A stretch of 38,979 nt of DNA from Actinomycetota bacterium. Its GTDB lineage: Bacteria > Actinomycetota > Thermoleophilia > Solirubrobacterales > 70-9. Position numbers and translations under genes: made by a program. The notes beneath the pieces were generated by a model. That model saw nothing but the letters and a program-made list of their open reading frames with translations, was not told where the DNA came from and made no database searches. The DNA lies in assembly GCA_016870325.1 (NCBI GenBank), contig VGBV01000009.1, positions 1 to 38,979 of the forward strand, given 5' to 3'. Positions 232-15,625 of this stretch are shown here, one piece after another (positions within the stretch are counted from its first letter, which is position 1; each line of letters starts with the position of its first letter).

Positions 232-933
232 GTGACCGCCGAGCCGTCTTCGATCCATCTCGAGCCCTCCCAGCCGATCGCCCCGGACGTGCTCCTGCCC
301 GGAGACCCCGGCCGCGCGATGGCGCTGGCCCAGCAGCTGCTGGCGAAGCCGCTGATGAGCAACCACAGCCGCGGGCTCTGGGGATACTCCGGCGAGACGC
401 GGGAGGGGATGCCGCTGACGATCCAGTCGACCGGCATGGGAGGCCCGAGCGCCGCGATCGTCCTGCACGAGCTGGCCGAGCTCGGGGTGCGCAGGGCGAT
501 CCGGGTCGGCACCTGCGCGGCGCTCGAGGGGTCGCTCGAGCTGGGCGAGCTGGTCGTGGCCGAGGCGGCCCTACCCGGCGACGGCGTCAGCCGCGCGCTC
601 GGCCAGCAGGGACCCGTCGAGCCCGACCCGGCGCTGCACTCGAGCCTCGAGCGCGCCGCCGCGTGCAGGCCGGTGCTCATCGCTTCAACGGACCTCTTCC
701 ACGAGTACGACGAGGCGCCCCGGGAGGGCTGGATTCGCGCAGGGGCCGCGGTGGTCGAGATGGAGTGCGCCCCGCTGTTCACGCTCGGTCGCCGGCTCGG
801 CGTGGCGCTGGCCTGCGCCCTGATCGTGAGCGATGTCTTCGCGGGCGCCGAGCGCGTCAGGATCGAGCCCGAGGCGCTGGGCCGCTCGGTGCAGCGGATG
901 GGCGCGGCGGCGGCGGCGGCCCTTGCGTTCTAG
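232..933 (+). CDS. Nucleoside phosphorylase family protein (PNP_UDP_1)
   Basis: This 233-residue protein has the marks of the purine-nucleoside/uridine phosphorylase family: LLPGDPGRA near the N-terminus (phosphate loop), GGPSAAIVLHEL and IRVGTCAAL in the middle, and VVEMECAPLF, the Glu-Met-Glu segment that contacts the ribose. Members split nucleosides with phosphate into base and ribose-1-phosphate in the cytoplasm. The frame is open further upstream, but homology begins just after the GTG at 232, which also has a -10-like hexamer 8 nt before it and avoids overlap with the divergent gene. The stop is a TAG within CTAG. Uridine-type and purine-type members cannot be separated from motifs alone. 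Confidence 0.85.
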   Translation: MTAEPSSIHLEPSQPIAPDVLLPGDPGRAMALAQQLLAKPLMSNHSRGLWGYSGETREGMPLTIQSTGMGGPSAAIVLHELAELGVRRAIRVGTCAALEGSLELGELVVAEAALPGDGVSRALGQQGPVEPDPALHSSLERAAACRPVLIASTDLFHEYDEAPREGWIRAGAAVVEMECAPLFTLGRRLGVALACALIVSDVFAGAERVRIEPEALGRSVQRMGAAAAAALAF

Positions 934-971
934 CCGAGGCGCCGCGGCGCCGATTGCGCCGTCCCGCCGAC

Positions 972-990
972 CCTCGAGCAACGGTCGAGG
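972..990 (+). terminator. Weak hairpin downstream of the phosphorylase gene
   Basis: CCTCGA (972-977) pairs with TCGAGG (985-990) across a 7-nt loop, 39 bp after the stop codon. There is no T tract, so a terminator role is only possible. Confidence 0.3.
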
Positions 991-1006
991 CTAGAGGAGT
1001 GATCAT

Positions 1007-1173
1007 CTAGTGGCCCTTCTCGGAACGTTCGCCAGGAAATGACGCAGGCCAGGCGCCGCCAGGCAAGGACGCAGGGAGTCCGAACAGCAGCGCTATTCGG
1101 ACGACCGAGGACGCAGCATGGTGGTGATCTGGACCAGTCATTTCCGGTGAGACGTTTCGAGGAGGGCCACTAG
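1007..1173. repeat. 167-bp palindromic element, copy 1 (MITE-like), CTAG-bounded
   Basis: The element starts and ends with CTAG. Its outer 37 bp at each end form an imperfect inverted repeat (30 of 37 positions match; outermost bases CTAGTGGCCC). An internal stem GTCCGAACAGC / GCTATTCGGAC with an AGC loop has one mismatch. Copy 2 follows directly and is identical over the 163-bp repeat period. No transposase is encoded. CTAG at both ends fits a 4-bp target duplication. The pre-insertion site can be reconstructed as the stop codon of the minus-strand gene at 1333-1659. Confidence 0.85.
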
Positions 1174-1336
1174 TGGCCCTTCTCGGAACGTTCGCCAGGA
1201 AATGACGCAGGCCAGGCGCCGCCAGGCAAGGACGCAGGGAGTCCGAACAGCAGCGCTATTCGGACGACCGAGGACGCAGCATGGTGGTGATCTGGACCAG
1301 TCATTTCCGGTGAGACGTTTCGAGGAGGGCCACTAG
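1170..1336. repeat. 167-bp palindromic element, copy 2, sharing a CTAG with copy 1
   Basis: This is an exact repeat of copy 1 at a 163-bp period; the CTAG at 1170-1173 serves as the right end of copy 1 and the left end of copy 2. Its right CTAG (1333-1336) contains, on the minus strand, the TAG stop of the phasin-like gene. No gene lies in 934-1332 other than this repeat pair. Confidence 0.85.
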
Positions 1337-1659
1337 TGGCTCGCAGGGCCGGGAGCGCCGCCGCGCAGCGCCGCGATCTCGCGCGAGACCCGGTCGAGGG
1401 CGTCCTCGACCTCCTCGAGCCGCTCCGAGACGGCCCGCAGCCGCCGCTCGAGGCGATCGGTGTCGGAGGCCGTCGGCAGGTTGAGCCCGCGGATCGCGTG
1501 CGCGCCGGCGACCGAGGCGCGCTCGCGCGCGTCGAACGCGACCCCCAGGGCGTGCTTCAGCCAGGGGTTGTCGAGCAGCAGCTGCGCGAGCTCGTTCAGG
1601 GCCTCTTCGCCCCTCGCCGAGAACCTCTCCCTGAGCCCTTCGTCTGCGCTCTGATCCAT
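1333..1659 (-). CDS. Small helical protein, phasin-like
   Basis: This is a 108-residue protein without signal peptide or membrane segment. After an acidic start (M-D-Q-S-A-D-E) it has LLLDNPWLKHALGVAFDARE and then a heptad-like coiled coil (RLERRLRAVSERLEEVEDAL) to residue 95. Short helical proteins of this kind in actinobacteria are often annotated as poly(3-hydroxyalkanoate) granule- or membrane-associated, but no function can be read from the sequence. A ribosome site (GGAG) precedes the ATG at 1659. The stop codon lies in the CTAG that also ends repeat copy 2, so the element begins immediately 3' of the gene. It is divergent from the cell-wall hydrolase. Confidence 0.7.
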   Translation of the reverse strand: MDQSADEGLRERFSARGEEALNELAQLLLDNPWLKHALGVAFDARERASVAGAHAIRGLNLPTASDTDRLERRLRAVSERLEEVEDALDRVSREIAALRGGAPGPASH

Positions 1660-1717
1660 CGCTCCGCGGCCACGTTAGCGCGGGTCGAATCGGGCTTGGC
1701 TGAGGCTCATCCCCGTG

Positions 1718-1854
1718 GGCGGCGAAGTGCACACAAACTTCATAAATCCGCCGCCGTGCTGAGGTAGGTTTCAGGCACGAAGAAGGCCTCCGGCATGGCG
1801 GAGAGTGACTCGTTAGCTTTCAGCCTGCCCGCTGGCGGGGTACTCAAGACTTTG
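1718..1854 (+). promoter_or_regulatory. Structured 5' leader of the cell-wall hydrolase gene, class unknown
   Basis: The stretch before the ATG at 1855 can form successive hairpins: GGCGGC (1718-1723) with GCCGCC (1750-1755), enclosing GAAGT/ACTTC (1724-1728/1737-1741); GTGCTGA (1756-1762) with TCAGGCAC (1771-1778, one bulge); CTCCG/CGGAG (1788-1792/1799-1803); and CCCGC/GCGGG (1828-1832/1835-1839; the two-nt loop makes a CCCG/CGGG pairing with a four-nt loop more realistic). Cell-wall hydrolase genes in actinobacteria are often preceded by c-di-AMP riboswitches, but I did not find that class's conserved blocks here. Candidate cis-regulatory RNA only. Confidence 0.35.
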
Positions 1855-4389
1855 ATGACGAAAAGGCTCCTACTGATCGTTGCGCTGGCCTCGGCCCTGG
1901 CAGTGGCCGTCGCCGGCGTGGCCACGTCCTCGACCTCGGGCGGGGACATGCAGATCGACGTCCCCGCCGCCGCCCCCCTCCCCGAGTGCGCCGACCTGAT
2001 CGACAACGACGGCGACACGCTGATCGACTTCCCCGACGACCCCGACTGCGTCGACGCCAACACCGTCAGCGAGACCCCGATTCCCCCGCCGACCCCCGAG
2101 TGCTCGGACACGGCCGACAACGACCTCGACGGCCTCGCCGACATGGCCGACCCCGACTGCGTCGATCCCTCCGACCCCGCCGAGGCCGCCGACGCCCAGA
2201 TCGTGCCTGGCGCAGACCAGACCACGACCATCCCCGGCGCCCAGCCGAAGGACGGCTTCTTCAAGGACAAGGCCCCCAAGGACGGCTCGGCCCACGGCGG
2301 CAGCGAGCGCGAGAAGTTCGAGTCGGCCCCGATCCGCAATCCCGACGGCTCGCCCTCGGACTCGAACCCGAGCCTCACCCTCGCCCCCTTCGGCGCGGCC
2401 CCGATCGGCGTCCCCAACTTCGTCATCGACCGCTTCGAGATCCCCCCCTTCCTGCTGCCGATCTACCAGGCCTGCGGCACCGAGTACGGGATCCCCTGGC
2501 AGGTGCTGGCCTCGATCAACCGCATCGAGACCGCCTTCGGCACCAACCTCAACGTCTCCTCGGCCGGGGCGCTCGGCTGGATGCAGTTCATCCCCTCGAG
2601 CTGGCGGATGTACGGGACCGATGCCAACGAGGACGGGCGCAAGGACCCCTACAACCCCGTCGACGCGATCTGCGCCGCCGCGCGCTACCTGAAGGCGGCC
2701 GACTGGTCGGAGTCCCCGCGCGACGCGATCTTCGCCTACAACCACGCCGACTGGTACGTCGACGAGGTGCTGCTGTACGCGAACCAGTACGCGAAGCTCC
2801 CCGACGACCTGGTCGGATCGCTGACCGGGCTGACCGAGGGCGCCCACTTCCCCGTCGCCGCCGACGCCCGCTACGCCGACGACATATCAGAGCGCGAGGC
2901 GCTGCGAAAGACCGAGAGCGCCCGCGAGCTGCCGGGCAACGCCGCCGATATCATCTCCGACAGCCCCACCCGCCGAGGCATCAACATCTACTCGAGGGTT
3001 AATGCTCCGGTCGTCGCCGTCAACGACGGCGTCATCACGGAGATCGGCGAGAACGCGAAGCTCGGCAAGTTCGTCGTCCTCGAGGACGCATACGGCAACC
3101 GCTACACCTACGCGCAGCTCGGCGAGCTCTCCGAGCTGCACCCGGTTCCCAGGGACAGGGCGCTGAGCGCGGCGGACTTCGAGATCGTCGGCAAGGGCAA
3201 GGGGGACGAGGACGGCGTGCCCGCCGGGCCCGCGAGCCGCGGCCCTGACCTCAGCGACGCAACCGACTCCGCCCCGGACGCCGGCCCCTCCGGCGACGGC
3301 TCCGGCAAGACCGAGGACGACGCCAAGCCCGAGCCGCTGAACACCGAGGAGATGCGCTCGCGGCTGTTCGCGCTGCCCGAGCGGCCCGCGAACTCCGAGC
3401 TCGCCGGGCTCTCCGGCCAGCTCGACGGCCTCCTGGGCGAGAAGGTGCCGGGCTACGAGACCTTCAAGAGCTACTTCTCGAGCGCGTTCGAGTTCGACTC
3501 CGAGACGATGCAGCTCGCCCCGCTGCGGGTCGGCTCCAAGGTCGCCGGCGGCACCGTGCTCGGGCGCATCGGCCAGGTCACGGAGGCCGCCCCCCACGTC
3601 CACTTCGCGATCAAGCCCGCCGGGCGCGGCGCCCCCAAGATCGACCCGAAGCCGATCCTCGACGGCTGGAAGCTGTTGGAGACCACCGCGATCTACCGCG
3701 CCGCCGGCAAGGACCCGTTCGGCTCCTCGGGCGCGACGGTCGGCCAGATCCTGCTGATGAGCAAGGAGACCCTCGCCCAGCGCGTGCTGGCAGACCCCCG
3801 GATCGAGATCTACTCCTGCGGGCGCACCGACATCGAGTCCGGCCAGATCGACCGCCGCACCCTGGCCACTCTCGCCTACCTGACAGAGCGCGGCTACCGG
3901 CTGACGATCACCTCGCTCAAGTGCGGCCACAGCTACCTGACCTCCTCGGGCAACGTCTCCGCCCACTCCTCGGGCAACGCCGTCGACATCGCCCAGGTGA
4001 ACGGGCTGCCGATCCTCGGCAACCAGGGGCGGGGCTCGATCACCGAGGCGGTCGTCAAGGACCTGCTGCTGCTGCAGGGCACGATGCGCCCGGCCCAGAT
4101 CATCACCCTGATGGAGTTCGGGGGCCCGACCTTCGCGATGAGCGACCATGACGACCACATCCACGTCGGCTTCACCCCCGCCTACGGGGACGGGCGCCCC
4201 TCGACCCAGCTCGCCCAGGTGCTGAAGCCCGGCCAGTGGGAGCGCCTGATCGACCGCCTCGGCGAGATCGACAACCCCGAGGTGCCCGCCAAGGTCTCCG
4301 ACGCGGCCCTGCCCGCCGGCAAGCGCGACATCCCGACGCCCGCCGAGATCGAGAACGACCGCGGCAGCGGGGCTCACCGCGGCGAGTAG
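1855..4389 (+). CDS. Secreted multidomain murein hydrolase: transglycosylase, degenerate LytM, M15-type peptidase
   Basis: This 844-residue protein starts at the ATG at 1855, which opens a good signal peptide (MTKRLLLIVALASALAVAV); the in-frame ATG at 1795 would bury it. Residues 44-104 hold two acidic repeats of the form C-x-D-x(3)-DND-x-DG with a DPDC end, likely calcium-binding. Residues 200-315 are a lytic transglycosylase domain with catalytic Glu225 (INRIETAFG) and GWMQFIPSSW. Residues 371-425 plus 560-600 form a split LytM/M23 fold: the H-x-H motif is present (H581, H583), but the usual first His and the Asp are R374 and N377, and about 130 residues, largely low-complexity, interrupt it. 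Residues 650-775 resemble M15/VanY peptidases, with ligands H704, D711, H768 and H770. It probably cleaves or remodels peptidoglycan outside the membrane. Confidence 0.85.
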   Translation: MTKRLLLIVALASALAVAVAGVATSSTSGGDMQIDVPAAAPLPECADLIDNDGDTLIDFPDDPDCVDANTVSETPIPPPTPECSDTADNDLDGLADMADPDCVDPSDPAEAADAQIVPGADQTTTIPGAQPKDGFFKDKAPKDGSAHGGSEREKFESAPIRNPDGSPSDSNPSLTLAPFGAAPIGVPNFVIDRFEIPPFLLPIYQACGTEYGIPWQVLASINRIETAFGTNLNVSSAGALGWMQFIPSSWRMYGTDANEDGRKDPYNPVDAICAAARYLKAADWSESPRDAIFAYNHADWYVDEVLLYANQYAKLPDDLVGSLTGLTEGAHFPVAADARYADDISEREALRKTESARELPGNAADIISDSPTRRGINIYSRVNAPVVAVNDGVITEIGENAKLGKFVVLEDAYGNRYTYAQLGELSELHPVPRDRALSAADFEIVGKGKGDEDGVPAGPASRGPDLSDATDSAPDAGPSGDGSGKTEDDAKPEPLNTEEMRSRLFALPERPANSELAGLSGQLDGLLGEKVPGYETFKSYFSSAFEFDSETMQLAPLRVGSKVAGGTVLGRIGQVTEAAPHVHFAIKPAGRGAPKIDPKPILDGWKLLETTAIYRAAGKDPFGSSGATVGQILLMSKETLAQRVLADPRIEIYSCGRTDIESGQIDRRTLATLAYLTERGYRLTITSLKCGHSYLTSSGNVSAHSSGNAVDIAQVNGLPILGNQGRGSITEAVVKDLLLLQGTMRPAQIITLMEFGGPTFAMSDHDDHIHVGFTPAYGDGRPSTQLAQVLKPGQWERLIDRLGEIDNPEVPAKVSDAALPAGKRDIPTPAEIENDRGSGAHRGE

Positions 4390-4396
4390 CCCGGCC

Positions 4397-4588
4397 GGCC
4401 CCGGACGCGCAGCGGAGGAGCCGGCCCTGATGGACGGCCCCGGACGCGCAGCGGAGGAGCCGGCCCTGATGGACGGCCCCGGCAGCGCAGCGGAGGAGCC
4501 GGCCCTGATGGACGGCCCCGGCAGCGCAGCGGAGGAGCCGGCCCTGATGGACGGCCCCGGCAGCGCAGCGGAGGAGCCGGCCTGAATG
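4397..4588 (+). repeat. 39-bp tandem repeat, about five units, each with a ribosome site and ATG
   Basis: Units start at 4397, 4436, 4475, 4514 and 4553. Units 1-2 and 3-5 differ slightly (GGACGCGCAG versus GGCAGCGCAG). Each unit holds GGAGGAG followed about 8 nt later by ATG. The last unit has lost one C, so its ATG (4586) becomes the start of the downstream gene and GGAGGAG becomes that gene's Shine-Dalgarno. The array fills the gap after the hydrolase gene. Confidence 0.9.
4430..4585 (+). CDS. Possible small repeat peptide encoded by the tandem array
   Basis: Because 39 bp is 13 codons, the array is open from the first ATG (4430) through 51 codons of the repeat MDGPGSAAEEPAL (RAA in place of SAA in the first two units). 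It ends with TGA at 4583-4585, directly abutting the ATG of the next gene. Each in-frame ATG has its own GGAGGAG. If translated, it would couple translation to the next gene. Nothing shows it is a functional protein, and it may be a by-product of the repeat. Confidence 0.3.
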   Translation: MDGPGRAAEEPALMDGPGSAAEEPALMDGPGSAAEEPALMDGPGSAAEEPA

Positions 4589-5299
4589 CTGCTCCCGTTC
4601 GTACAGCTCGACCTCCCCGGTCTGATCGGCCTGCCCGACGGGCGCTACCTGGCCCGCGAGGGCGAGCGCGAGCAGGTGCTGATCGTCGAGGCCTTCGGCG
4701 CCCCGAAGCCGCCGGGGCGCCTGCAGCGGCGCACCCGGCCCGCCCACGCGGACCCCGACGATGCCGTGCCGGTGACCAGGGTCAGCGTCACCCTTGCCGA
4801 GCGCTTCGAAAGCGAGACCGAGGCCGTGCGCTGGCTCGAGGCGACGGCCGGCGACGCGGCCAAGCGCGCCGCCGAGGTGCGCGCCGCGGTCCGGGTAGTA
4901 AACCGCGCCCTGAACGCGCTCCGCGCCGCCGCCCGCGACCCCCTGGTCCAGGACATCGGCGCCACCCGTGCCCTAGCGGTCAGGGTCGGGTTCGGAAGCG
5001 GCGACGAGCTGATCGAGGGGCGCTGGCAACAGGCGCGCGAGCTCTCCCCGCCCCGCCGCGGGCGCCTCGACGACATTGACCCCCAGAGCCGGGTCGCGGC
5101 AGTGCTCTCCGGCCGCGACCGGGTCCACCCCTCGGAGACCCTGCTCGAGCGCGCCCGCCTCGACATCGAGCAGGACCGTCCCGGGGAGGCCCGCCACGGC
5201 CTGCGCGCCGCCCGCGCCGCCCTGGAGGACTCCCCCGAAGGAGCGCCCTCCGACCTCGCCGAGCGCATCGCCGAGGCCGAGCAGCGCCTCGATCGATGA
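4586..5299 (+). CDS. Conserved-looking protein of unknown function
   Basis: This 237-residue protein has no signal peptide. The first 50 residues (LLPFVQLDLPGLIGLPDGRYLAREG) could be a small beta-rich domain. The rest is charged and helical, with an Ala/Arg-rich segment at about 85-125 and a C-terminal amphipathic helix pair at about 190-235 (LLERARLDIEQDRPGEARHG). I do not recognise the family. The start is the ATG at 4586, with GGAGGAG supplied by the last unit of the 39-bp repeat. The gene follows the hydrolase on the same strand and ends with TGA, 26 bp before repeat copy 3. Confidence 0.65.
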   Translation: MLLPFVQLDLPGLIGLPDGRYLAREGEREQVLIVEAFGAPKPPGRLQRRTRPAHADPDDAVPVTRVSVTLAERFESETEAVRWLEATAGDAAKRAAEVRAAVRVVNRALNALRAAARDPLVQDIGATRALAVRVGFGSGDELIEGRWQQARELSPPRRGRLDDIDPQSRVAAVLSGRDRVHPSETLLERARLDIEQDRPGEARHGLRAARAALEDSPEGAPSDLAERIAEAEQRLDR

Positions 5300-5325
5300 G
5301 CATCCCTCCTCGCGTATTGGGGGCG

Positions 5326-5492
5326 CTAGTGGCCTTTCTCGGAACGTTCGCCAGGAAATGACGCAGGCCAGGCGCCGCCAGGCAAGGAGGCAGGGAGTCC
5401 GAATAGCAGCGCTATTCGGACGACCGAGGACCCAGCATGGTGGTGATCTGGACCGGTCATTTCCGGTGAGACGTCTTGAGGAGGGCCACTAG
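5326..5492. repeat. 167-bp palindromic element, copy 3, CTAG-bounded
   Basis: It has the same length, orientation and CTAG ends as copies 1 and 2, with about seven substitutions. The internal stem here is perfect: GTCCGAATAGC and GCTATTCGGAC flank AGC, because a T replaces the C that mismatches in copies 1 and 2. The right CTAG (5489-5492) holds the TAG stop of the minus-strand cupredoxin gene, the same arrangement as copy 2 and the phasin-like gene. Confidence 0.85.
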
Positions 5493-6070
5493 CCGACTGT
5501 CAGGGTCGCGTTCATGCCGTCCGGCTCGTGGGTCAGCAGGCTGCACCACAGGTACCACTGGCCCGCGCTCAGCGGCACGGTGCGATCCTCGACCCCGAGC
5601 GGCTCCAGCTCGAAGGGAGCGTCCTCGGGAATCGAGTAGACGGGGTCGAATCCGCTCGCCGGGCGCAGGTACAGGTTGTGGGGGTCCTCGCCCTGGTTTC
5701 GCAGCTCGACGTTGACCAGGCCGGCGTCCACGCAGGGGCGGGAGAGCACGTAGCGGGTGCCGGTGACGTCGTAGGCGGTGACCCCGACGGTCGAGGAGGG
5801 CTGCGCGCAGCCGGGCGGCTGGGGCACCGGCTCGCAGGTCCACCAGCGCTTCAGCTTCTTGCGCTTGACCCGCACCCACTTGCCGTTGCGGCGCACCTTC
5901 TTGCGCTTCACGACCGGCTTCGAGTACTGGACGGTGCCGCAGTCGGCGGCCGCCTGGGCGCCGGTGCGAGCATCGCCCGTCTGCGCCGTGCCTGCACCGC
6001 CGGCGCCCGCCGAGGCGGGCGGGGCGGCCAGGACGAGGGACGCCGCCAGCGCCGCGACCGCGGCCCTCAC
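5489..6070 (-). CDS. Secreted cupredoxin-like protein
   Basis: This 193-residue protein starts at the GTG at 6070, whose last two bases are part of the TGA of the upstream DUF1501 gene, so translation is probably coupled. Residues 1-21 form a signal peptide (ALAASLVLAAPPASA). Residues 51-76 are a very basic linker with KRKK and RVKRKK. Residues 95-193 fit a cupredoxin barrel, with candidate type 1 copper ligands H131 (EDPHNLYL), C176, H181 and M186 (WCSLLTHEPDGMNATL). It is the last gene of the DUF1800-DUF1501 operon and probably acts outside the membrane as a copper electron carrier or binder. The stop codon sits in the CTAG end of repeat copy 3. Confidence 0.8.
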   Translation of the reverse strand: MRAAVAALAASLVLAAPPASAGAGGAGTAQTGDARTGAQAAADCGTVQYSKPVVKRKKVRRNGKWVRVKRKKLKRWWTCEPVPQPPGCAQPSSTVGVTAYDVTGTRYVLSRPCVDAGLVNVELRNQGEDPHNLYLRPASGFDPVYSIPEDAPFELEPLGVEDRTVPLSAGQWYLWCSLLTHEPDGMNATLTVG

Positions 6071-7428
6071 GAGACCAGCGTGTAGCGCGGCAGGCCCGAG
6101 GCCCCGGGGATGAGCCCCTCGGCGTCCTCCTCGAGCCACTGCTCGAACAGCGAGCAGTACATGCCGCGGAAGTCGCTGTTCCAGAGCAGGTTGTCGTCGT
6201 GGTCGAAGGAGGTCAGCCCCGGGAACTCGCCGACCATCTCGCCGGCGGCGCGCGTGCCGATCACGAACGCGAGGCCGGCGGCGCCGTGGTCGGTTCCGGC
6301 CGAGCCGTTCTCGTCGGGCCGGCGGCCGAACTCGCTCCACACCTCCATCAGCACACGGTCGTCCTCGCCGCGCGCCTCCAGGTCGCGCTGGAATGCGTAG
6401 ATCGCATCGCAGGTGCGGCCGAGGTTGTTGCCGAAGGACTGCGCCTGGTCGGAGTGGGTGTCGTACCCACCCGGGGCGCTGACGGTGACGCAGGAGAGCG
6501 GCATCCCGCGCCCGATCATCTCGGCGAGCCCCGAGAGCTTCTCGCCGAAGTTCGTGTTCGGATAGGCCACCGGCGGCGTGAAGCCCTCGAAGGTCGCGAG
6601 CAGCTCGCGAAGGTCGCTCGTCTGGGCGGTCGCATTGCGGACCTGGCCCATCGGCTCGGAGTCCGCGGGCAGGTCGCCGAAGTGGCCGAAGCTGTTGTAC
6701 ATCGGCGCGGCCACGGGATCGCCGACCCCGTGCGTGTACATGTCGTAGTCGGTGACGTCGTCAACGGCCGCGACGGGCATCGACGCTGTCGCAATCGAGG
6801 GCGAGAGGCTGCCGTCCAGCGAGAGGCCCTGGAGCGGGTTGTCATCGGCGCCGGTGCGGTCGATGTAGCGGCCGAGCCAGCCGGTTCGCGCTCCCACCTC
6901 GAGCTCGCCGATCTCATAGAAGTGGCGCGAGGTGAAGTGGGACTGGTTGGGGCTGGTGTAGCCGATCGCGGGGAAGGTGGAGACCTTGCCCTCGCCGTGC
7001 AGGGTGGCGAGCGGACTCGCCGACGGGTGCCAGCGCAGGCTCGTGTCCTCGGCGAAGGCGGTCCCCTCGGTCGGCCCCAGCGCCAGCGTCGGGCGCAGCC
7101 CCGCGTACTGCGGATGGCCCGTCGGCGCCAGCACGCTCATCGAGTCGATGCCACCGTCGAAGAAGACCGAGACGAGGATGCGCCCGTTGGTAGCGGCGTG
7201 TGCGATTCCGTCCTCGAAGGCGGCGAAGGGGAGCTTGCCGGCGCCGTAGACGGCGAGCGCCAGCCCGGCGCTGCGCGAGAGGAACGTGCGACGCGAGAGC
7301 CCAGTGCCGGCGGGCAGGGGCATTCCGGTCTCGATCGCCGGCAATCCCTTGCCGGCCTGCGCCGCCGATGCGCGAAGCATCTCCGAGCGGGTGTAGTTGC
7401 TGCAGCAGTTGTGGTTGCGCTGGGGCAT
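6067..7428 (-). CDS. DUF1501 family protein with Tat signal
   Basis: This 453-residue protein has a twin-arginine motif, SRRTFLSRSAGLALAVYG, at residues 45-62 after an unusually long 44-residue N-terminal region, so export in a folded state is likely. The body is typical of DUF1501, a branch of the alkaline phosphatase/sulfatase superfamily: VFFDGGIDSMSVL, GYDTHSDQAQSFG, SEFGRRPDENGSAGTDHG and WNSDFRGMY. No biochemical role is established for the family that I can apply here. The upstream DUF1800 stop is 9 bp before its ATG, and its own TGA overlaps the GTG of the cupredoxin gene, so the three form one transcription unit. Confidence 0.88.
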   Translation of the reverse strand: MPQRNHNCCSNYTRSEMLRASAAQAGKGLPAIETGMPLPAGTGLSRRTFLSRSAGLALAVYGAGKLPFAAFEDGIAHAATNGRILVSVFFDGGIDSMSVLAPTGHPQYAGLRPTLALGPTEGTAFAEDTSLRWHPSASPLATLHGEGKVSTFPAIGYTSPNQSHFTSRHFYEIGELEVGARTGWLGRYIDRTGADDNPLQGLSLDGSLSPSIATASMPVAAVDDVTDYDMYTHGVGDPVAAPMYNSFGHFGDLPADSEPMGQVRNATAQTSDLRELLATFEGFTPPVAYPNTNFGEKLSGLAEMIGRGMPLSCVTVSAPGGYDTHSDQAQSFGNNLGRTCDAIYAFQRDLEARGEDDRVLMEVWSEFGRRPDENGSAGTDHGAAGLAFVIGTRAAGEMVGEFPGLTSFDHDDNLLWNSDFRGMYCSLFEQWLEEDAEGLIPGASGLPRYTLVS

Positions 7429-7437
7429 CGATTCCTC

Positions 7438-9069
7438 TCAGCCGAGCAACAGGTCCGGGGAGATGGCGATCAGCTGCTGCAGGGCGTTCTGGCGCATGGC
7501 GCGATAGGGACTTTTCTGCCAGCTGGCGAGCGAGGCGGGAAAGGCGTTGCCCGAGAAGCTCAGCAGCTCGTTGTGGTGCTCGACCCGAAGCGGCGGGTAA
7601 TCCAATGCCTCCAGAGCCTTCTCGAGCGCGGGATCGCGCTCCTCGGCCGGGTCGTAGTCGGGGCCGTTCCAGGGATCGAAATAGCTCTCCTCCAAGGCCC
7701 AGGTGACGGTCAGCCAGCGCGCGCGCAGGCGCGAGGTGTCGAGCCAGCGGTCGTCGTCCCAGCCCGACACGTTCGGCGGCCAGAAGAGCTGCTGGCCGGC
7801 CATGTCGCCGAGCCACGCCCAGGCCTCGGTATCGACGCCGCGCCCGAGCGCGCGCAGCAGGCTCGCCGTGAACACGACCGGCGGCTTCACCATCGGCGGG
7901 CCCAGATAGAGGTCGGGGTGCATCAGGATCGCCTCGACGACCGGCCTGATCGCGTACGCGTTCGACTTGTAGATCGAGGCCAGCGCGTCGCGGGTGTCGG
8001 CCGACGGGGGCTGGGGGACGAAGTAGCTCCACAGCTTCTCGACGAAGAAGGAGGCGTGAAGGGGATGCTCCAGGCACAGGCGCGGAACGTCGTCCCAGTT
8101 CCAGTTCGCGGCCGGGTTGACGTTGAAGGTCGAGCTCGGACCCGAGAAGATCGCCTTGTTCGCGGTGCTGTGGCGGTTGGGGTCGAAGCGGAAGTTGTGG
8201 GAGCCCAGCTCCGGGGACCAGTCGTTGCGCCAGCCCGTCAGGCCCTTCGCCGCCTCGCGGATGTCGTTCTCCGTATAGGCCGGCGTCGGCTCGCGGTCGG
8301 CACCGAGCGTGAACAGCTCCATCAGCTCACGCGCGTAGTTCTCGTTCGGGGCGTTCTTGCGGTTCTCGTTGCCGTTCAGCCACTGCAGCATCGCCGGGTC
8401 CTTGGTCACGTTCACGGTCAGCGTCAGGAACGAGCCGAGGCAGCCGGCGCGGAACAGGTTCGACTGGTCGATCATGTGCTGCTGGCGCTCGACCCCGGCG
8501 TTCGAGGTCGCGAACCAGTCGTGGAAGACGAGCGCCATCCGCTCCACCAGGGGCTGGCTCGAGCGCACCATGCGGTCGAGCCACCAGAGGTGGTCGTGCC
8601 CCCAGCGGTCGGCCGGGGCGAGCGGGTTGCCGTCATCGTCGTGGGGCGCCGGGCCGGTGAGCTGCGCGGCGCCCGCTGGCCGGGTCAGCGACTGGACCGC
8701 TGCCTGAAGTCCCGCCTGGGCGAGGCCGACCGCCTCGCCACGACGGGCGCCGAACCCGGCCCGGTCGAGCAGGCGTTTGGCCTGCAGCCGCCCGAAGGGG
8801 CCCTGGTAGACGCCGAAGGGCTGCGGGGAAGCGGGGGGCTGGGGGCTCTGCGGCGTCGGCAGCGGCCGGGGCGGGGGGTTTGGTTGCGGCGTGTCGCGCC
8901 ACTCGACGGTCTCGCGCACGAGCCCGTCCCCGGGGTCCGTGTATCCCAGCACGTGCTTGTACTTCTGGGGCGGCTGGGGCGGCTGGGGCTGCTGCTGGGC
9001 GCCCGGCCTCTTCTTCCGCTTCTTCTTGCGCTTGCGCCGTTTCCGGGCCAGCTGGGCGACTTCCGCCAT
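7438..9069 (-). CDS. DUF1800 family protein
   Basis: This 543-residue protein contains the DUF1800 landmarks: LLDRAGFGARRGEA near residue 95, RMALVFHDWFATS, ENYARELMELFTLG, GLTGWR and WPPNVSGWDDDRWL. DUF1800 and DUF1501 genes are regularly found side by side, as here, which supports both calls. Residues 9-21 are thirteen consecutive Arg/Lys, followed by a Pro/Gln-rich tract to about 85. No conventional signal peptide is visible, so how it would reach the exported DUF1501 partner is unclear. The ATG at 9069 is preceded by GGGAG about 9 nt upstream. First gene of the operon. Confidence 0.88.
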   Translation of the reverse strand: MAEVAQLARKRRKRKKKRKKRPGAQQQPQPPQPPQKYKHVLGYTDPGDGLVRETVEWRDTPQPNPPPRPLPTPQSPQPPASPQPFGVYQGPFGRLQAKRLLDRAGFGARRGEAVGLAQAGLQAAVQSLTRPAGAAQLTGPAPHDDDGNPLAPADRWGHDHLWWLDRMVRSSQPLVERMALVFHDWFATSNAGVERQQHMIDQSNLFRAGCLGSFLTLTVNVTKDPAMLQWLNGNENRKNAPNENYARELMELFTLGADREPTPAYTENDIREAAKGLTGWRNDWSPELGSHNFRFDPNRHSTANKAIFSGPSSTFNVNPAANWNWDDVPRLCLEHPLHASFFVEKLWSYFVPQPPSADTRDALASIYKSNAYAIRPVVEAILMHPDLYLGPPMVKPPVVFTASLLRALGRGVDTEAWAWLGDMAGQQLFWPPNVSGWDDDRWLDTSRLRARWLTVTWALEESYFDPWNGPDYDPAEERDPALEKALEALDYPPLRVEHHNELLSFSGNAFPASLASWQKSPYRAMRQNALQQLIAISPDLLLG

Positions 9070-9126
9070 CCGTCAACGCTCCCTCGTTCGCATCCTGCTG
9101 GCGGCCTCGACAATATTGGGGGGGGC

Positions 9127-9132
9127 ACTTTA
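9127..9132 (-). promoter_or_regulatory. Possible -10 of the DUF1800 operon
   Basis: TAAAGT on the minus strand lies about 57 bp before the DUF1800 start, in the divergent gap with the zinc-ribbon gene. It is the most AT-rich hexamer there apart from the CAATATTG just downstream. No convincing -35 was found. Confidence 0.3.
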
Positions 9133-9163
9133 GCCGCGGCTCCGGGCGTGGACATCTGGTCCC

Positions 9164-9169
9164 TACCCT
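9164..9169 (+). promoter_or_regulatory. -10-like TACCCT, leaderless start
   Basis: TACCCT ends 7 nt before the GTG at 9177, with no Shine-Dalgarno. The same hexamer precedes the genes at 10623 and 24270. Confidence 0.45.
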
Positions 9170-9176
9170 CGTTGGC

Positions 9177-9458
9177 GTGGAAGGCGGCGCCTACATCGCG
9201 ATCGCGATCAGCTTCGGGATCGCCACCGGGGTGATCGGCAGGGCCAAGGGCAGCTCCTTCCTGATCTGGTTCGCAGTCGGGGCGGTGCTGCCGTTGCTAG
9301 GCCTGCTGGCCGTCATCCTCTTTCGCTCGGACCGCAACGAGCCCGAGCGCCGGTGCCCCACCTGCAACAAGGTCGTGAAGCTCTACGTCCAGGTCTGCCC
9401 GCGCTGCGGCACCGACCTCTACCTGCCCGACCCCTCCGAGGTCCGGACGCCCGACTGA
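9177..9458 (+). CDS. Small membrane protein with C-terminal zinc ribbon
   Basis: This 93-residue protein has two membrane segments (about 5-21 and 28-49) followed by a zinc-ribbon knuckle pair, C60-P-T-C63 and C74-P-R-C77, on the cytoplasmic or outer side. The GTG at 9177 follows a TACCCT by 7 nt; the frame is open further upstream, but that part overlaps the DUF1800 gene and lacks similar character. Function unknown; the layout suggests a membrane-anchored nucleic-acid- or protein-binding module. It converges on the glycosyltransferase gene with 4 bp between stop codons. Confidence 0.75.
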   Translation: MEGGAYIAIAISFGIATGVIGRAKGSSFLIWFAVGAVLPLLGLLAVILFRSDRNEPERRCPTCNKVVKLYVQVCPRCGTDLYLPDPSEVRTPD

Positions 9459-9462
9459 GCCG

Positions 9463-11801
<2,339 letters not shown>

Positions 11802-11854
11802 CCGCCCGCGGCGACGCCTGGTATCCGCTGACCAGCGCAAGAACCGCCGCTCGC

Positions 11855-11860
11855 TACCAT
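11855..11860 (+). promoter_or_regulatory. -10-like TACCAT, leaderless ilvB start
   Basis: TACCAT ends 6 nt before the ATG at 11867. The spacing would place transcription start at or next to the ATG, and no Shine-Dalgarno is seen. Confidence 0.5.
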
Positions 11861-11866
11861 CGCCTC

Positions 11867-13594
11867 ATGCGCGCTGCCGACGCACTGATGGAGGCCCTCA
11901 AGGCCGAGGGCGTGGAGCATGTCTTCGGGATCCCGGGCGGGGCCAACCTGCCCACCTACGACGCGATCTATGACGCGGACCTGACCCACGTCCAGGCGCG
12001 ACACGAGCAGGGCGCGGGGCATATGGCCGAGGGCTACGCCAAGGCCTCCGGCCGGGTCGGCGTGGCGATGGCGACCTCCGGCCCCGGTGCCACCAACCTC
12101 GTGACCGCGGTCGCCGACGCGATCATGGACTCGGTCCCGACGGTGTTCGTGACCGGCCAGGTGCGCACGGACCTGATCGGAACCGACGGCTTTCAGGAGG
12201 CCGACGTCAGCGGCATCACGCTGCCGATCGTCAAGCACTCGCTGATGGTCAAGGACCCCCGCCAGATCCCCGAGTACATCCACCAGGCCTTCCACATCGC
12301 CTCGACCGGCCGCCCCGGCCCGGTGCTCGTCGACGTGCCCCAGGACCTCTCGCGCGCCGACATCTCCTACGAGCCCAGCACCGAGCCCGTCGAGCTGCCC
12401 GGCTACAAGCCCTCGACCGAGGGCAACATCAAGCAGATCCGGATCGCCGCCAAGGCGCTCGCAAACTCCTCGCGCCCGGTGATCTACGCCGGCGGCGGCG
12501 TGATCAACGCCAACGCCTCCGAGGAGCTGCGCGAGCTCTGCCTCTCCGACAGCTTCCCCGTCACCTGCACGCTGATGGGCCTGGGGGGCTTTCCCGGCAC
12601 GCACGAGCAGTGGCTCGGCATGCTCGGGATGCACGGCACCCGCACCGCCAACTACGCGATGGACGAGGCCGACCTGATCGTCTGCGTCGGCGCCCGCTTC
12701 GACGACCGGATCACGGGCAAGCTCTCGGAGTTCGCGCCGCGCGCCAAGTTCGTCCACATCGACATCGACCCCGCCGAGATCTCCAAGAACGTCCCGGCGC
12801 ACATACCGATCGTGGGTGACGCCAAGCAGGTGCTCCCGAAGCTGACCAAGGAGTATCGGGCGATCAAGGCCGATCCCTCGCGCCTCGAGCCATGGTGGGA
12901 TCGGATCCGCGCCTGGCAGCGCGACTACCCGCTCGACCACGAGCGCTCGGAGACCGGAGAGATCAAGCCGCAGGCGATGGTCGAGGCGATGTACAAGGTG
13001 ACGGACGGCGACGCGATCATCACCTCCGACGTCGGCCAGCACCAGATGTGGGCCGCTCAGTACTACAACTTCGACAAGCCCCGACGCTGGATCAACTCCG
13101 GCGGGCTGGGCACGATGGGCTTCGGGCTTCCCTCCGCGATCGGCGCCCAGGTCGCCTGTCCCGACGAGACGGTCGTCTGCCTGGCGGGCGACGGCAGCCT
13201 GGTGATGACGTGCCAGGAGCTGGCGACCGCGGTCCACCACGAGATCCCGGTCAAGGTCTTCCTCATGAACAACGGCTACTTCGGCATGGTCCGCCAGTGG
13301 CAGGAGCTGTTCTGGGAGAAGCGCTACTCCTCGGTCGAGATGGGCCCGAGCCCCGACTGGGAGAAGCTGGCCGAGGCGTTCGGCGCCAAGGGCATGCGCG
13401 TGGACGACGCCGCCGAGGTCGAGGGGGCGATGCGCGACGCGCTCGCGACCGAGGGCCCGGTGCTGCTGGACGTCCGCGTCGCCCCGCATGAGAACTGCTA
13501 CCCGATGATCCCCGCCGGATCGGCTGCCCGCGACATGGTCGGCGGCCCCGCACCAGAGGCCGACTCCTCCGCTTCGCGTCCGGGGTCGGCCTAG
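11867..13594 (+). CDS. ilvB: Acetolactate synthase, large (catalytic) subunit
   Basis: This 575-residue ThDP enzyme joins two pyruvates, or pyruvate and 2-oxobutyrate, in the first common step of valine, leucine and isoleucine synthesis. The ThDP-activating Glu47 is in ARHEQGAGHMAEGYA; GDGSLVMTCQE to the later NN is the ThDP/Mg motif; GARFDDRITG belongs to the FAD-binding middle domain. The length is normal. The longer frame to 11225 is a shadow of the sulfoquinovose synthase gene. ilvN follows 8 bp downstream, so the two subunits are co-expressed. No Val/Leu/Ile codon run suggesting attenuation is seen upstream; the start looks leaderless. Confidence 0.96.
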   Translation: MRAADALMEALKAEGVEHVFGIPGGANLPTYDAIYDADLTHVQARHEQGAGHMAEGYAKASGRVGVAMATSGPGATNLVTAVADAIMDSVPTVFVTGQVRTDLIGTDGFQEADVSGITLPIVKHSLMVKDPRQIPEYIHQAFHIASTGRPGPVLVDVPQDLSRADISYEPSTEPVELPGYKPSTEGNIKQIRIAAKALANSSRPVIYAGGGVINANASEELRELCLSDSFPVTCTLMGLGGFPGTHEQWLGMLGMHGTRTANYAMDEADLIVCVGARFDDRITGKLSEFAPRAKFVHIDIDPAEISKNVPAHIPIVGDAKQVLPKLTKEYRAIKADPSRLEPWWDRIRAWQRDYPLDHERSETGEIKPQAMVEAMYKVTDGDAIITSDVGQHQMWAAQYYNFDKPRRWINSGGLGTMGFGLPSAIGAQVACPDETVVCLAGDGSLVMTCQELATAVHHEIPVKVFLMNNGYFGMVRQWQELFWEKRYSSVEMGPSPDWEKLAEAFGAKGMRVDDAAEVEGAMRDALATEGPVLLDVRVAPHENCYPMIPAGSAARDMVGGPAPEADSSASRPGSA

Positions 13595-13602
13595 GAGTCG
13601 CG

Positions 13603-14157
13603 ATGGAGGCTGGGACACCCGATCTGATCAAGCTCGAGGACCTGGAGGCGGCCTCGGGGCGCCTTACCGGGCGCAAGCACGTGCTCTCGATCACGACCGA
13701 GAACAAGCCCGGTGTGCTGGCCCGAATCGCCGGCCTCTTCAGCCGCCGCGGATTCAACATCGACACGCTCGCCGTCGGTCCGACCGAGGACCCCGAGATC
13801 GCGCGCTTCACGCTGACCGTGGACGGCGCGGTCCACCCGATCGACCAGGTGACCAAGCAGCTCCACAAGCTGGTCAACGTGATCAAGATCCGCGACATGA
13901 GCCCGGGCGAGACGATCGCCCGCGAGATGGCGCTGTTCAAGGTCTCGGCGCCGATCGAGAGCCGGGCCGAGATCATGCAGTTCGCCGAGATCTTCCGCGG
14001 CAAGATCGTCGACGTCAGTCGCCGCACGCTGACGATCGAGGTCACGGGCAGCGCCGACAAGATCGAGGCCTTCGAGCGCATGATCCGCCCGCACGGGCTG
14101 ATCGAGATGGTTCGCACGGGCGAGGTCGCGATCCAGCGGGCCAAGCCGGAGGCGTAG
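13603..14157 (+). CDS. ilvN: Acetolactate synthase, small (regulatory) subunit
   Basis: This 184-residue protein has an N-terminal ACT domain (about 25-100; HVLSITTENKPGVLARIAGL, SRRGFNIDTLAVGPTED) that binds valine for feedback control, and the ALS small-subunit C-terminal domain (about 105-180; EMALFKVSAP, RTLTIEVTG). It activates and regulates the catalytic subunit just upstream. The ATG is 8 bp after the ilvB stop. Confidence 0.95.
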   Translation: MEAGTPDLIKLEDLEAASGRLTGRKHVLSITTENKPGVLARIAGLFSRRGFNIDTLAVGPTEDPEIARFTLTVDGAVHPIDQVTKQLHKLVNVIKIRDMSPGETIAREMALFKVSAPIESRAEIMQFAEIFRGKIVDVSRRTLTIEVTGSADKIEAFERMIRPHGLIEMVRTGEVAIQRAKPEA

Positions 14158-14215
14158 GCCGCGCGACGATGGGCCCGTCGGATCGCCGGCGCCCTACAGG
14201 CAGCGCGGCCGCCTG

Positions 14216-15625
14216 ATGGCGAAGCCGTCTCTCTCCTCCATCGCGGCTGTCGATGCCGCTGAGGCCGCAATCCGGCGAGCCGCCGAGCGCGACGGCCGCA
14301 CGCTGGCGAGCGCGACCGTCCTGATCGACCCGCTCGACGTGGGCGGGTCGGTGCTCGCATCGCGGCTGGCATCGGACCGCTGGTTCTGCTGGGAGCAGCC
14401 CGAGCGCGACGGCTTCGCGCTGGGCGCGCTCGGCGCCGTTCGCGAGGTCGTCTCCAGGGGCGAGGACCGCTTCGGCGAGGTCGCGGCCGACTGCGCCGAG
14501 CTGCTGGGCGACGCGGCGATCGAGGCTCCTCCGGGGCTGCCGGCCGGCGCCGGGGCGGTCTGGACCGGCGGTTTCGCCTTCTCGCCCGACGGCGGCCGCA
14601 CCCCTGAGTGGTCCTCGCTGCCGCCGGCGCTGATGGTGATGCCCGAGCTCTCGCTGCTGCGCCAGGGCGCCGAATGCTGGCTGACCGTCAACGCCCTGGT
14701 CGCGGGCCCCGAGGATGCCGAGCCTGCGATCGCACGCGTCCGCAGGCGGCTCGAGGGCATGCGCGAGGGCTCGCCCGGACCGCTCGACCCGGACCCCACG
14801 GGGTCCTCGGAGATCGGCGCCCCGCGGCCTCCCGACGACTATGAGCGCATCGTCTCGGCGGGGGTGGAGCGGATCGAGGCAGGCGACCTCGAGAAGGTCG
14901 TGCTGGCGCGCGAGGTGACGGTCTCGGCGCCGGCTGCGCACGAGCCGGGCGCGGTCCTCGGGGCACTGCGCGAGCTGTTCCCGTCGTGCTTCTGCTTCTG
15001 CGTCGGCTCTCCCGAGGCCGCCTTCATCGGCGCCAGCCCCGAGCTGCTGATCCGGCGCCGCGGCGCCGTCGCGGCGACCGTGGCGCTGGCGGGGTCCACC
15101 AGGCGCAGCGCCGACCCCTCCGTGGACGACCACCTGGGCGAGCAGATGCTGCACAGCCCAAAGGTGCGGGAGGAGCACGAGATCGTCGCCCGGCGCATCG
15201 CCCGCTCGCTGCGCCCGATCTCGGTCTGGGTCCGGGACGAGGAGGAGCCCTCGGTCGTGCGCATCGCCAACGTCCAGCATCTCGCGACCCCGATCCAAGG
15301 ACAGCTGGCCGACTCGCGCTCGGCGGTCGAGCTGGCGGGACTGCTGCATCCGACCCCGGCCGTGGGCGGCGAGCCGCGCGAGCGCGCGATCGCCCTGATC
15401 GACGAGCTGGAGGGGCTCGACCGCGGCTGGTACGCCGGCCCTGTGGGCTGGATGGACGCGGCCGAGGACGGCGAGTTCTGCGTGGCGCTGCGCTCGGGCC
15501 TGCTGCGCGATCGCACGGCCCACCTCTTCGCCGGCTGCGGGATCGTGGCGGGGTCGGACCCCGCCTCCGAGCTGGCGGAGACCGAGATCAAGCTCGAAGC
15601 GCTGCTGCCGCTGCTCGCCGGGTGA
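14216..15625 (+). CDS. menF: Isochorismate synthase
   Basis: This 469-residue chorismate-utilising enzyme converts chorismate to isochorismate, the entry to classical menaquinone synthesis. Family marks: LEKVVLAREV with the general-base Lys, FIGASPELLIRRRG, LAGSTRRS, HSPKVREEHEIV, VQHLATPIQG, LHPTPAVGG, GWYAGPVGW and LFAGCGIVAGSDP, with metal-binding Glu in the last part. Salicylate or siderophore isochorismate synthases look similar, but menD, C, A, B and E nearby decide for menaquinone. The N-terminal 200 residues are less conserved, as usual. It converges with menD across a short secreted-protein frame. Confidence 0.92.
   Translation: MAKPSLSSIAAVDAAEAAIRRAAERDGRTLASATVLIDPLDVGGSVLASRLASDRWFCWEQPERDGFALGALGAVREVVSRGEDRFGEVAADCAELLGDAAIEAPPGLPAGAGAVWTGGFAFSPDGGRTPEWSSLPPALMVMPELSLLRQGAECWLTVNALVAGPEDAEPAIARVRRRLEGMREGSPGPLDPDPTGSSEIGAPRPPDDYERIVSAGVERIEAGDLEKVVLAREVTVSAPAAHEPGAVLGALRELFPSCFCFCVGSPEAAFIGASPELLIRRRGAVAATVALAGSTRRSADPSVDDHLGEQMLHSPKVREEHEIVARRIARSLRPISVWVRDEEEPSVVRIANVQHLATPIQGQLADSRSAVELAGLLHPTPAVGGEPRERAIALIDELEGLDRGWYAGPVGWMDAAEDGEFCVALRSGLLRDRTAHLFAGCGIVAGSDPASELAETEIKLEALLPLLAG

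What the first reader, a model, noticed from the sequence alone, without database searches (positions are those of the whole stretch)
4397..4588. Tandem repeat that supplies a ribosome site and start codon in every unit
The 39-bp units each contain GGAGGAG and ATG. All are in one open frame (13 codons per unit), which closes with TGA directly against the ATG of the next gene. A single-base loss in the last unit switches the frame to the downstream gene. Changes in unit number would alter the number of ribosome entry sites and coupled translation upstream of the gene at 4586.
Basis: partly seen in the sequence, partly recalled or inferred. Interest (0 to 1): 0.55.

Follow-up and report, generated by a model that had tools for sequence, protein, structure and literature searches.

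The report
Hairpin repeat carrying ribosome-binding signals

Summary
The array is real: TRF finds 4.8 copies of 39 bp at 4396-4582, 98% matches. Each unit carries GGAGGAG and ATG; one open frame ends in TGA against ATG 4586. But the unit is not local. Its 19-nt core, CCGGACGCG(A/C)AGCGGAGGA, recurs in this genome (45 hits, 0 in the reversed control) and in 20 of 36 relatives from the same family, but in 0 of 24 genomes from other families of the order. The core is the tip of a hairpin whose arms differ between sites yet stay complementary (covariation 0.315 against 0.123 shuffled, 0/500). Two genes show a net gain of exactly 39 nt (13 codons) against a sister species; at dxs all 16 relatives aligned lack it. 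Five of five relatives examined lack the window array. GGAGG is intact in 21 of 22 copies antisense inside genes but in only 6 of 10 G000 copies just upstream of a start codon, so ribosome binding does not explain its conservation. Another array in the genome is four mini-ORFs coupled by ATGA overlaps, as reported for MIRUs. Best reading: a MIRU/REP-like mobile palindrome that can pass ribosomes on. The mobiliser is unknown.

The parts
4390..4585 (+). tandem array of about five 39-bp palindromic units filling the junction between two genes
   Evidence: TRF 4396-4582, period 39, 98%; sequence; absent in 5 of 5 orthologous junctions examined
4401..4419 (+). core of unit 1 (CCGGACGCGCAGCGGAGGA)
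   Evidence: RNA model match 4387-4431
4440..4458 (+). core of unit 2
4479..4497 (+). core of unit 3 (CCGGCAGCGCAGCGGAGGA variant)
4518..4536 (+). core of unit 4
4557..4575 (+). core of unit 5
4393..4426 (+). hairpin of unit 1: arms 4393-4399 and 4420-4426, inner pairs 4401-4402/4417-4418 and 4406-4408/4412-4414
   Evidence: predicted fold; covariation of the same structure across 104 sites
4430..4585 (+). open frame through the array, ATG 4430 to TGA 4583-4585, abutting ATG 4586
   Evidence: translation
4586..5299 (+). conserved downstream gene of unknown family
   Evidence: ORF; no Pfam match; orthologous junctions in five relatives
1795..4389 (+). upstream gene with transglycosylase SLT and peptidase M23 domains
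   Evidence: Pfam PF13406, PF01464, PF01551
13565..13583 (-). second copy of the element in the window (core), inside the 3' end of a thiamine-pyrophosphate enzyme gene followed by an acetolactate synthase small subunit gene, antisense to both; shared with the sister species
   Evidence: RNA model match 13553-13597

Best explanation
The array is a tandem expansion of a 39-bp palindromic interspersed element belonging to one family of Solirubrobacterales. The element is a conserved 19-nt core inside a stem whose arms differ between sites but remain complementary. Shown: it is interspersed, found only in one family among the genomes examined, structured, gained at particular sites in this species, and its net insert length at the two clearest sites is 39 nt (13 codons). 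Inferred: it moves or is copied by an unidentified agent, and survives where it does little harm, namely as an in-frame 13-residue linker inside proteins or at gene junctions, where its open frame, its GGAGG when intact and its TGATG-like end can keep ribosomes running into the next gene. At 4390-4585 an insertion between the SLT/M23 gene and the gene at 4586 was amplified to about five units. Ribosomes that finish the upstream gene probably translate the 51-residue array frame and restart at ATG 4586, with the last unit's GGAGG as the binding site.
For: Interspersed and family-specific: 45 core hits with up to 1 mismatch in G000, 0 with the reversed pattern; 21 of 61 genomes have it, all in family f1 (21 of 37), 0 of 24 from other families of the order. 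RNA model R1: 24 of 37 family genomes, 0 of 24 others; 10 of 199 genomes drawn from the class, all family f1. Exact scan of GTDB contigs: 77 stretches, 70 in MAGs labelled Solirubrobacterales, Thermoleophilia, another actinobacterial name or just 'bacterium'; the 7 from clearly other taxa have stems of only 1-2 bp. Structure: stems of 6 bp or more in 70 of 123 arm pairs against about 6.4 when arms are swapped; covariation 0.315 against 0.123 shuffled and at most 0.110 when slid, 186 cells changed on both sides against 76 shuffled. Mobility: net 39-nt gain in dxs and in a metallo-beta-lactamase-fold gene against G001, the 13 residues absent from 16 of 16 dxs relatives aligned; 58 model matches in G000 against 10 in same-genus G001. 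New here: 5 of 5 orthologous junctions lack the array. Frames: 22 of 22 antisense in-gene sites use one frame and 33 of 40 sense sites use PGREAEE. Coupling: in G000, 9 of 11 downstream sense genes start 6-14 nt after the core, whereas starts on the antisense side lie 29, 50 and 58 nt away; array C56 is four MTSIPGREAEEMR mini-ORFs overlapping by ATGA, the last overlapping the next gene.
Against: No mobilising enzyme was identified: no Y1_Tnp in G000, although G015, the genome with the most model matches (66), and G012 do have one. No expression or ribosome data. Four of ten G000 copies just upstream of a sense start lack an intact GGAGG in the core, and these ten cores are the most divergent class (mean 1.1 mismatches against 0.4 for antisense in-gene), so the ribosome-site role is not conserved even there. 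In other genomes start spacing is broad (6 of 17 within 14 nt). Folding energy does not support structure in the window array (z 0.55; unit 1 z -1.2 as RNA, -0.48 as DNA; the second window copy, as cut, folded otherwise). The number of pairs with a both-sided change (10 of 14) did not exceed shuffles (138/500). G.T and A.C mismatches in arms are equal (13 and 13). Five of 16 G001 comparisons were ambiguous.
Confidence: 0.7

Rival explanations
1. The array evolved as a translation-control device for the gene at 4586: each unit is a ribosome entry site and unit number tunes expression.
For: GGAGG and ATG in every unit and TGA abutting ATG 4586; five relatives lack GGAGG there; precedent for repeat length and expression at M. 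tuberculosis fpg1 (PMC2734929, abstract and passages).
Against: The same core occurs across the genome, including inside and antisense to genes, with GGAGG at least as intact there; the motif lies in a predicted stem; none of five relatives has the array, so it is recent.
Confidence: 0.12
2. A structured regulatory RNA (riboswitch-like leader or attenuator) with a conserved loop and covarying stem, copied by duplication.
For: Strong covariation; conserved tip; some copies directly upstream of start codons.
Against: 22 of 37 classed sites in G000 are inside genes, in both orientations; wobble pairs show no strand preference; 39-nt gains in coding sequence; no credible Rfam match in the stretch scanned.
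Confidence: 0.05
3. A classical REP element moved by a RAYT (Y1) transposase.
For: Size, palindrome, complementary stem changes and position near gene ends resemble REPs (PMC3733652, abstract and passages); two element-bearing genomes, G012 and G015, have a Y1_Tnp.
Against: No Y1_Tnp in G000, G001, G002, G003, G004, G005, G013 or G019, all of which have the element; no enrichment of GTAG (13 of 116 sites, shuffled 21.5) and little of CGTC (46, shuffled 41.1) beyond the arms; head-to-tail arrays; more than half of classed G000 sites lie inside genes.
Confidence: 0.13
4. Ordinary minisatellite slippage of a chance GC-rich word, without any mobile element.
For: Units 1-2 and units 3-5 are internally identical, as expected for slippage expansion.
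Against: The core is dispersed with unlike flanks and covarying arms, and arrays at different loci share the 38-39-bp period.
Confidence: 0.03

Closest known systems
MIRU (mycobacterial interspersed repetitive units)
   Same: Short, dispersed, apparently mobile repeats that form tandem arrays at gene junctions and carry a small ORF coupled to the next gene; array C56 uses the same -4 (ATGA) overlap (PMC12548453, passage).
   Different: 39 bp, at or below the 40-100 bp given in PMC2734929; a hairpin with site-specific arms; often inside genes; another branch of actinobacteria. Sequence homology to MIRU was not tested.
REP elements (GTAG/CGTC families)
   Same: 20-40 bp palindromes with complementary stem variation, near gene ends, some intragenic (PMC3733652, abstract and passages).
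   Different: No clear GTAG/CGTC tag beside the stem, no Y1 transposase in G000, direct tandem arrays where that paper reports mainly opposite-orientation dimers, conserved structured 19-nt tip.
Rickettsia palindromic elements (RPE)
   Same: Palindromes inserted in frame in protein genes and also intergenic (PMC2229807, section 9 read).
   Different: 39 bp against 105-146 bp; another taxon; tandem arrays.
Variable tandem repeats upstream of M. tuberculosis fpg1 (ETR-F/VNTR3239)
   Same: Tandem repeats between two co-oriented genes in one lineage and only a short junction in other species (PMC2734929, passages).
   Different: Unit-number variation and its relation to expression were measured there; neither could be measured here.

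Membership tests
MIRU | Short repeats dispersed at many sites, some as tandem arrays | tested here: met
   58 model matches in G000; five arrays listed in G000, two of them possibly one
MIRU | Inserted at start codons with an internal ORF coupled at -4 nt | tested here: inconclusive
   Met at array C56; the window array has adjacent TGA|ATG instead; 22 of 37 classed G000 sites are inside genes
MIRU | Sequence homology to MIRU | not tested
   No MIRU sequence was fetched or compared; no record named Mycobacterium is among the 77 stretches of the exact scan
MIRU | Copy-number variation between strains | not testable with these tools
   The genome search holds one genome per species; metagenome scans were capped at 0
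REP (RAYT-mobilised) | Short palindrome with complementary stem changes | tested here: met
REP (RAYT-mobilised) | GTAG or CGTC tag at the stem foot | tested here: not met
   In the 21 nt beyond the inner arms, either strand: GTAG 13 of 116 sites (shuffled 21.5), CGTC 46 (shuffled 41.1), GGAG 56 (shuffled 43.5)
REP (RAYT-mobilised) | Y1/RAYT transposase in the genome | tested here: not met
   PF01797: 0 in G000 (93% complete); 6 of 37 genomes have one at E<=0.001, of which G012 and G015 also have the element
Rickettsia palindromic element | In-frame insertion in protein genes | tested here: met
   13-residue gain in dxs, absent in 16 of 16 relatives aligned; in-gene frames
Rickettsia palindromic element | 105-146 bp long, Rickettsia-specific sequence | tested here: not met
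   39 bp, found in Solirubrobacterales
Known structured RNA | Match to an Rfam family | tested here: not met
   Window 900-14500: two hits, both far below gathering score and outside the array

The most novel reading that the evidence does not exclude
A minimal mobile cassette of fixed length, 39 nt or 13 codons: a single hairpin that inserts in frame in proteins and, at gene junctions, brings a Shine-Dalgarno-like motif, start and stop so that translation of the next gene is kept. The arms are rewritten at each new site but kept complementary, and arrays in at least four genera repeat at 38-39 bp, which would imply a dedicated insertion mechanism with a built-in ruler, carried out by an enzyme not identified here.
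Probability: 0.3. Interest if true: 0.7.

Novelty: new variant of a known kind. Interest (0 to 1): 0.5.

Why it matters
If it moves as inferred, it is among the smallest bacterial inserting elements (REPs are 20-40 bp), and shows how a repeat can spread through dense operons and protein genes with little damage: a length that is a multiple of three, harmless reading frames, and signals that can pass ribosomes on. It parallels MIRUs in another branch of actinobacteria. Arms that differ between sites yet stay complementary pose a concrete question: how does a new copy get a new but self-complementary stem?

Tried and rejected
Y1/RAYT transposase search: none in G000. Rfam on window 900-14500: nothing credible. 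Folding energy of the whole array: not lower than shuffles, so energy was not used as evidence. Strand preference from wobble pairs: 13 against 13 over 108 sites, no signal. The alignments of L033 and L067 and of L038 and L066 were against non-orthologous places and were not counted; L033 and L038 were redone. An orthologous stretch for L067 was found but not aligned. Whether the arms derive from the target and whether there is a target-site duplication could not be settled: the insert edges at dxs and the metallo-beta-lactamase-fold gene can slide by a few bases. L072 is probably a chance core match in a lysine-rich gene end, yet it was left in the counts. A literature search with the element's own letters found 0 papers; the search joining the taxon with repeat words listed 12 of 2,928 papers, none relevant; some searches gave the four papers cited. 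These cover open PMC papers only, so absence from print is not shown.

For the covariation count I aligned 104 of the 116 distinct sites; the 12 left out were second units of arrays and weakly matching copies, whose arms pair poorly, so one search is somewhat favourable. The swap test used all 123 arm pairs, the 7 from other taxa included. In one search the set of other genomes held one G000 site (L096); one search repeats the counts without it, and the report uses those (83 sites instead of 84; 6 of 17 instead of 7 of 18).

Full report
Check of the observation. The array is as described: 39-bp units at 98% matches, five core copies, GGAGG 11 nt before an ATG in every unit, one open frame of 51 residues from 4430 and a TGA abutting ATG 4586. 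It fills the whole junction (4390-4585) after the stop of a gene with SLT and M23 domains. One nuance: the base missing in the last unit brings the TGA into frame, and the array frame and the gene then share the same phase.

It is not a local feature. A search of the own genome found the unit's core at other places, and the core pattern gave 45 hits with up to one mismatch against 0 for the reversed pattern. With up to three mismatches there were 59 hits against 15 in the control, so the loosest matches are partly chance. Among 61 genomes 21 have it, all in the same family (21 of 37); none of 24 genomes from other families of the order does. A covariance model widened this to 24 of 37 family genomes and still 0 of 24 others, and to 10 of 199 genomes drawn from the class, all in the family. 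An exact scan of the named GTDB contigs returned 77 stretches; 70 carry Solirubrobacterales, Thermoleophilia, other actinobacterial or merely 'bacterium' MAG names, and the seven from clearly other taxa lack complementary arms. Records near the own genome may be left out of that scan.

Anatomy. Outside the conserved CCGGACGCGAAGCGGAGGA the two flanks differ between sites but pair with each other: 70 of 123 arm pairs have at least 6 contiguous pairs, against about 6.4 expected after swapping arms between sites. On 104 aligned sites (of 116) the named structure has covariation 0.315 (shuffled 0.123, 0 of 500; slid versions at most 0.110), and 186 cells changed on both sides against 76 shuffled; the number of pairs with such a change, 10 of 14, does not exceed shuffles (138/500). 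The outer pair of the core also changes on both sides (97 C-G, 6 G-C). The predicted fold is arms, then CC-GGA-CGC-GNA-GCG-GA-GG. G.T and A.C mismatches are equally common (13 each over 108 sites), so the data do not single out one strand.

Insertions. I compared 40 G000 sites with 1.23 Mb of the same-genus genome G001; 17 had a match at the site. I aligned 16. Six lack the element in G001: the window array, dxs, a metallo-beta-lactamase-fold gene, a gene with a 72-nt gain carrying a longer form (L039), a three-unit array (L053), and a junction before a gene with an Aconitase_C domain (L068; leuD by recall). Five have a recognisable, often diverged copy in both: the acetolactate-synthase site in this window, L033, L049, L059 and L073; at L059 the six inner pairs are intact in G001 and broken in G000. 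Five have no recognisable core in G001 but no clear insert edge either (L038, L050, L056, L071, L072). In dxs and the metallo-beta-lactamase-fold gene the net gain is exactly 39 nt. Pfam gives transketolase domains for the first and Lactamase_B for the second; the name dxs is recalled. In dxs the thirteen residues are absent from 16 of 16 relatives aligned (of 24 searched), two of which have one residue more than the rest, while the flanking protein is conserved. In the metallo-beta-lactamase-fold gene that loop varies in length among the ten relatives aligned, so the case there rests on G001.

Where it sits. With a simple codon-model gene caller without any ribosome-site bonus, 22 of 37 classed G000 sites are inside genes (12 sense, 10 antisense) and 15 between genes; in other genomes 40 of 83 are inside (28 sense, 12 antisense). 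All 22 antisense in-gene sites use the SSASRPG frame, and 33 of 40 sense ones use PGREAEE (binomial P about 3e-11 and 2e-10 against one third). In G000, 9 of 11 downstream sense genes start 6-14 nt after the core (the other values are 46 and -29, the latter being the window array's own frame), while starts on the antisense side lie at 29, 50 and 58; in other genomes the spacing is broad, 6 of 17 within 14 nt. GGAGG in the core is intact in 6 of 10 G000 copies just upstream of a sense start and 6 of 6 elsewhere, against 21 of 22 antisense in-gene copies. The gene caller was trained on eight genes of this window and is a rough tool; sites were collected with up to two mismatches, which bounds these differences.

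Arrays. G000 has arrays with spacing 39 (window, C14, C28, C119, the last two possibly one array broken by assembly) and 38 (C56). In other genomes six of eight arrays have spacing 39, four of them in one genome; the others have 48 and 93. Second units in several of these have poorly pairing arms. The C56 array is four identical mini-ORFs, MTSIPGREAEEMR, each overlapping the next start by ATGA, with GAGGAG just upstream; the last overlaps a gene with a MaoC-like domain.

The locus in relatives. In G001, G003, G013, G009 and G020 the same gene is preceded by a short junction with no core and no GGAGG. The array is thus an acquisition of this lineage that placed a ribosome-binding-like motif before the gene.

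Interpretation. The conservation of GGAGGAG follows from the element, not from ribosome binding, because copies inside and antisense to genes keep it at least as well. But a palindrome with an open frame of 13 codons and a terminal ATG can land at a junction without stopping translation of the next gene. A review proposes the same for MIRUs (PMC12548453, passage: they appear mobile, insert at start codons and couple at -4 nt, likely with minimal impact). Repeat length upstream of fpg1 in M. tuberculosis goes with expression (PMC2734929, abstract and passages), so an effect of unit number is possible, but nothing here tests it.

Relation to known kinds. It works like a MIRU at junctions, like an RPE inside proteins (PMC2229807, abstract and section 9) and looks like a REP (PMC3733652, abstract and passages), but fails REP-RAYT membership on tag and, in this genome, transposase, and RPE membership on size and taxon. 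I file it as a new variant of the short mobile palindromic repeats.

Limits. Draft genome; no strains, no expression data; one close comparator, about half of it held; unit number may be an assembly estimate; literature limited to open PMC papers.

Noticed in passing
window 1007-1340 and 5328-5492: A 163-165-bp interspersed repeat with terminal inverted repeats (CTAGTGGCC...GGCCACTAG), twice in tandem at 1007-1340 and once just after the gene at 4586-5299; 53 BLAST rows in the own genome, the best 22 at 94-100% identity, several at contig ends. It looks like a MITE family.
   Followed up: partly
L065, G000:C56:12195-12330 (-): Four identical 13-residue mini-ORFs with ATGA overlaps between a gene ending RGV and a MaoC-like gene starting MNVGDSIPELRTTPDKYLPHRYAG: a cleaner example of coupled repeat ORFs than the window array.
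   Followed up: yes
L181 and G012:C37:37864-38001: In genus g12 the element recurs at 93-bp spacing in two genomes (G012, G019).
   Followed up: no
L033, L039, L044, L066, L067 upstream of the core: A longer form with a further hairpin-like stretch upstream (GGTTGCCAGGGCA..GCGCCC type, by inspection); at L039 the net gain against G001 is 72 nt.
   Followed up: partly
L059 and its G001 orthologue: Six inner arm pairs are intact in G001 and broken in G000, so pairing can decay at a site without being restored.
   Followed up: no
window 4586-5299: Conserved gene with no Pfam family; its orthologues in five relatives follow a similar upstream gene end.
   Followed up: no
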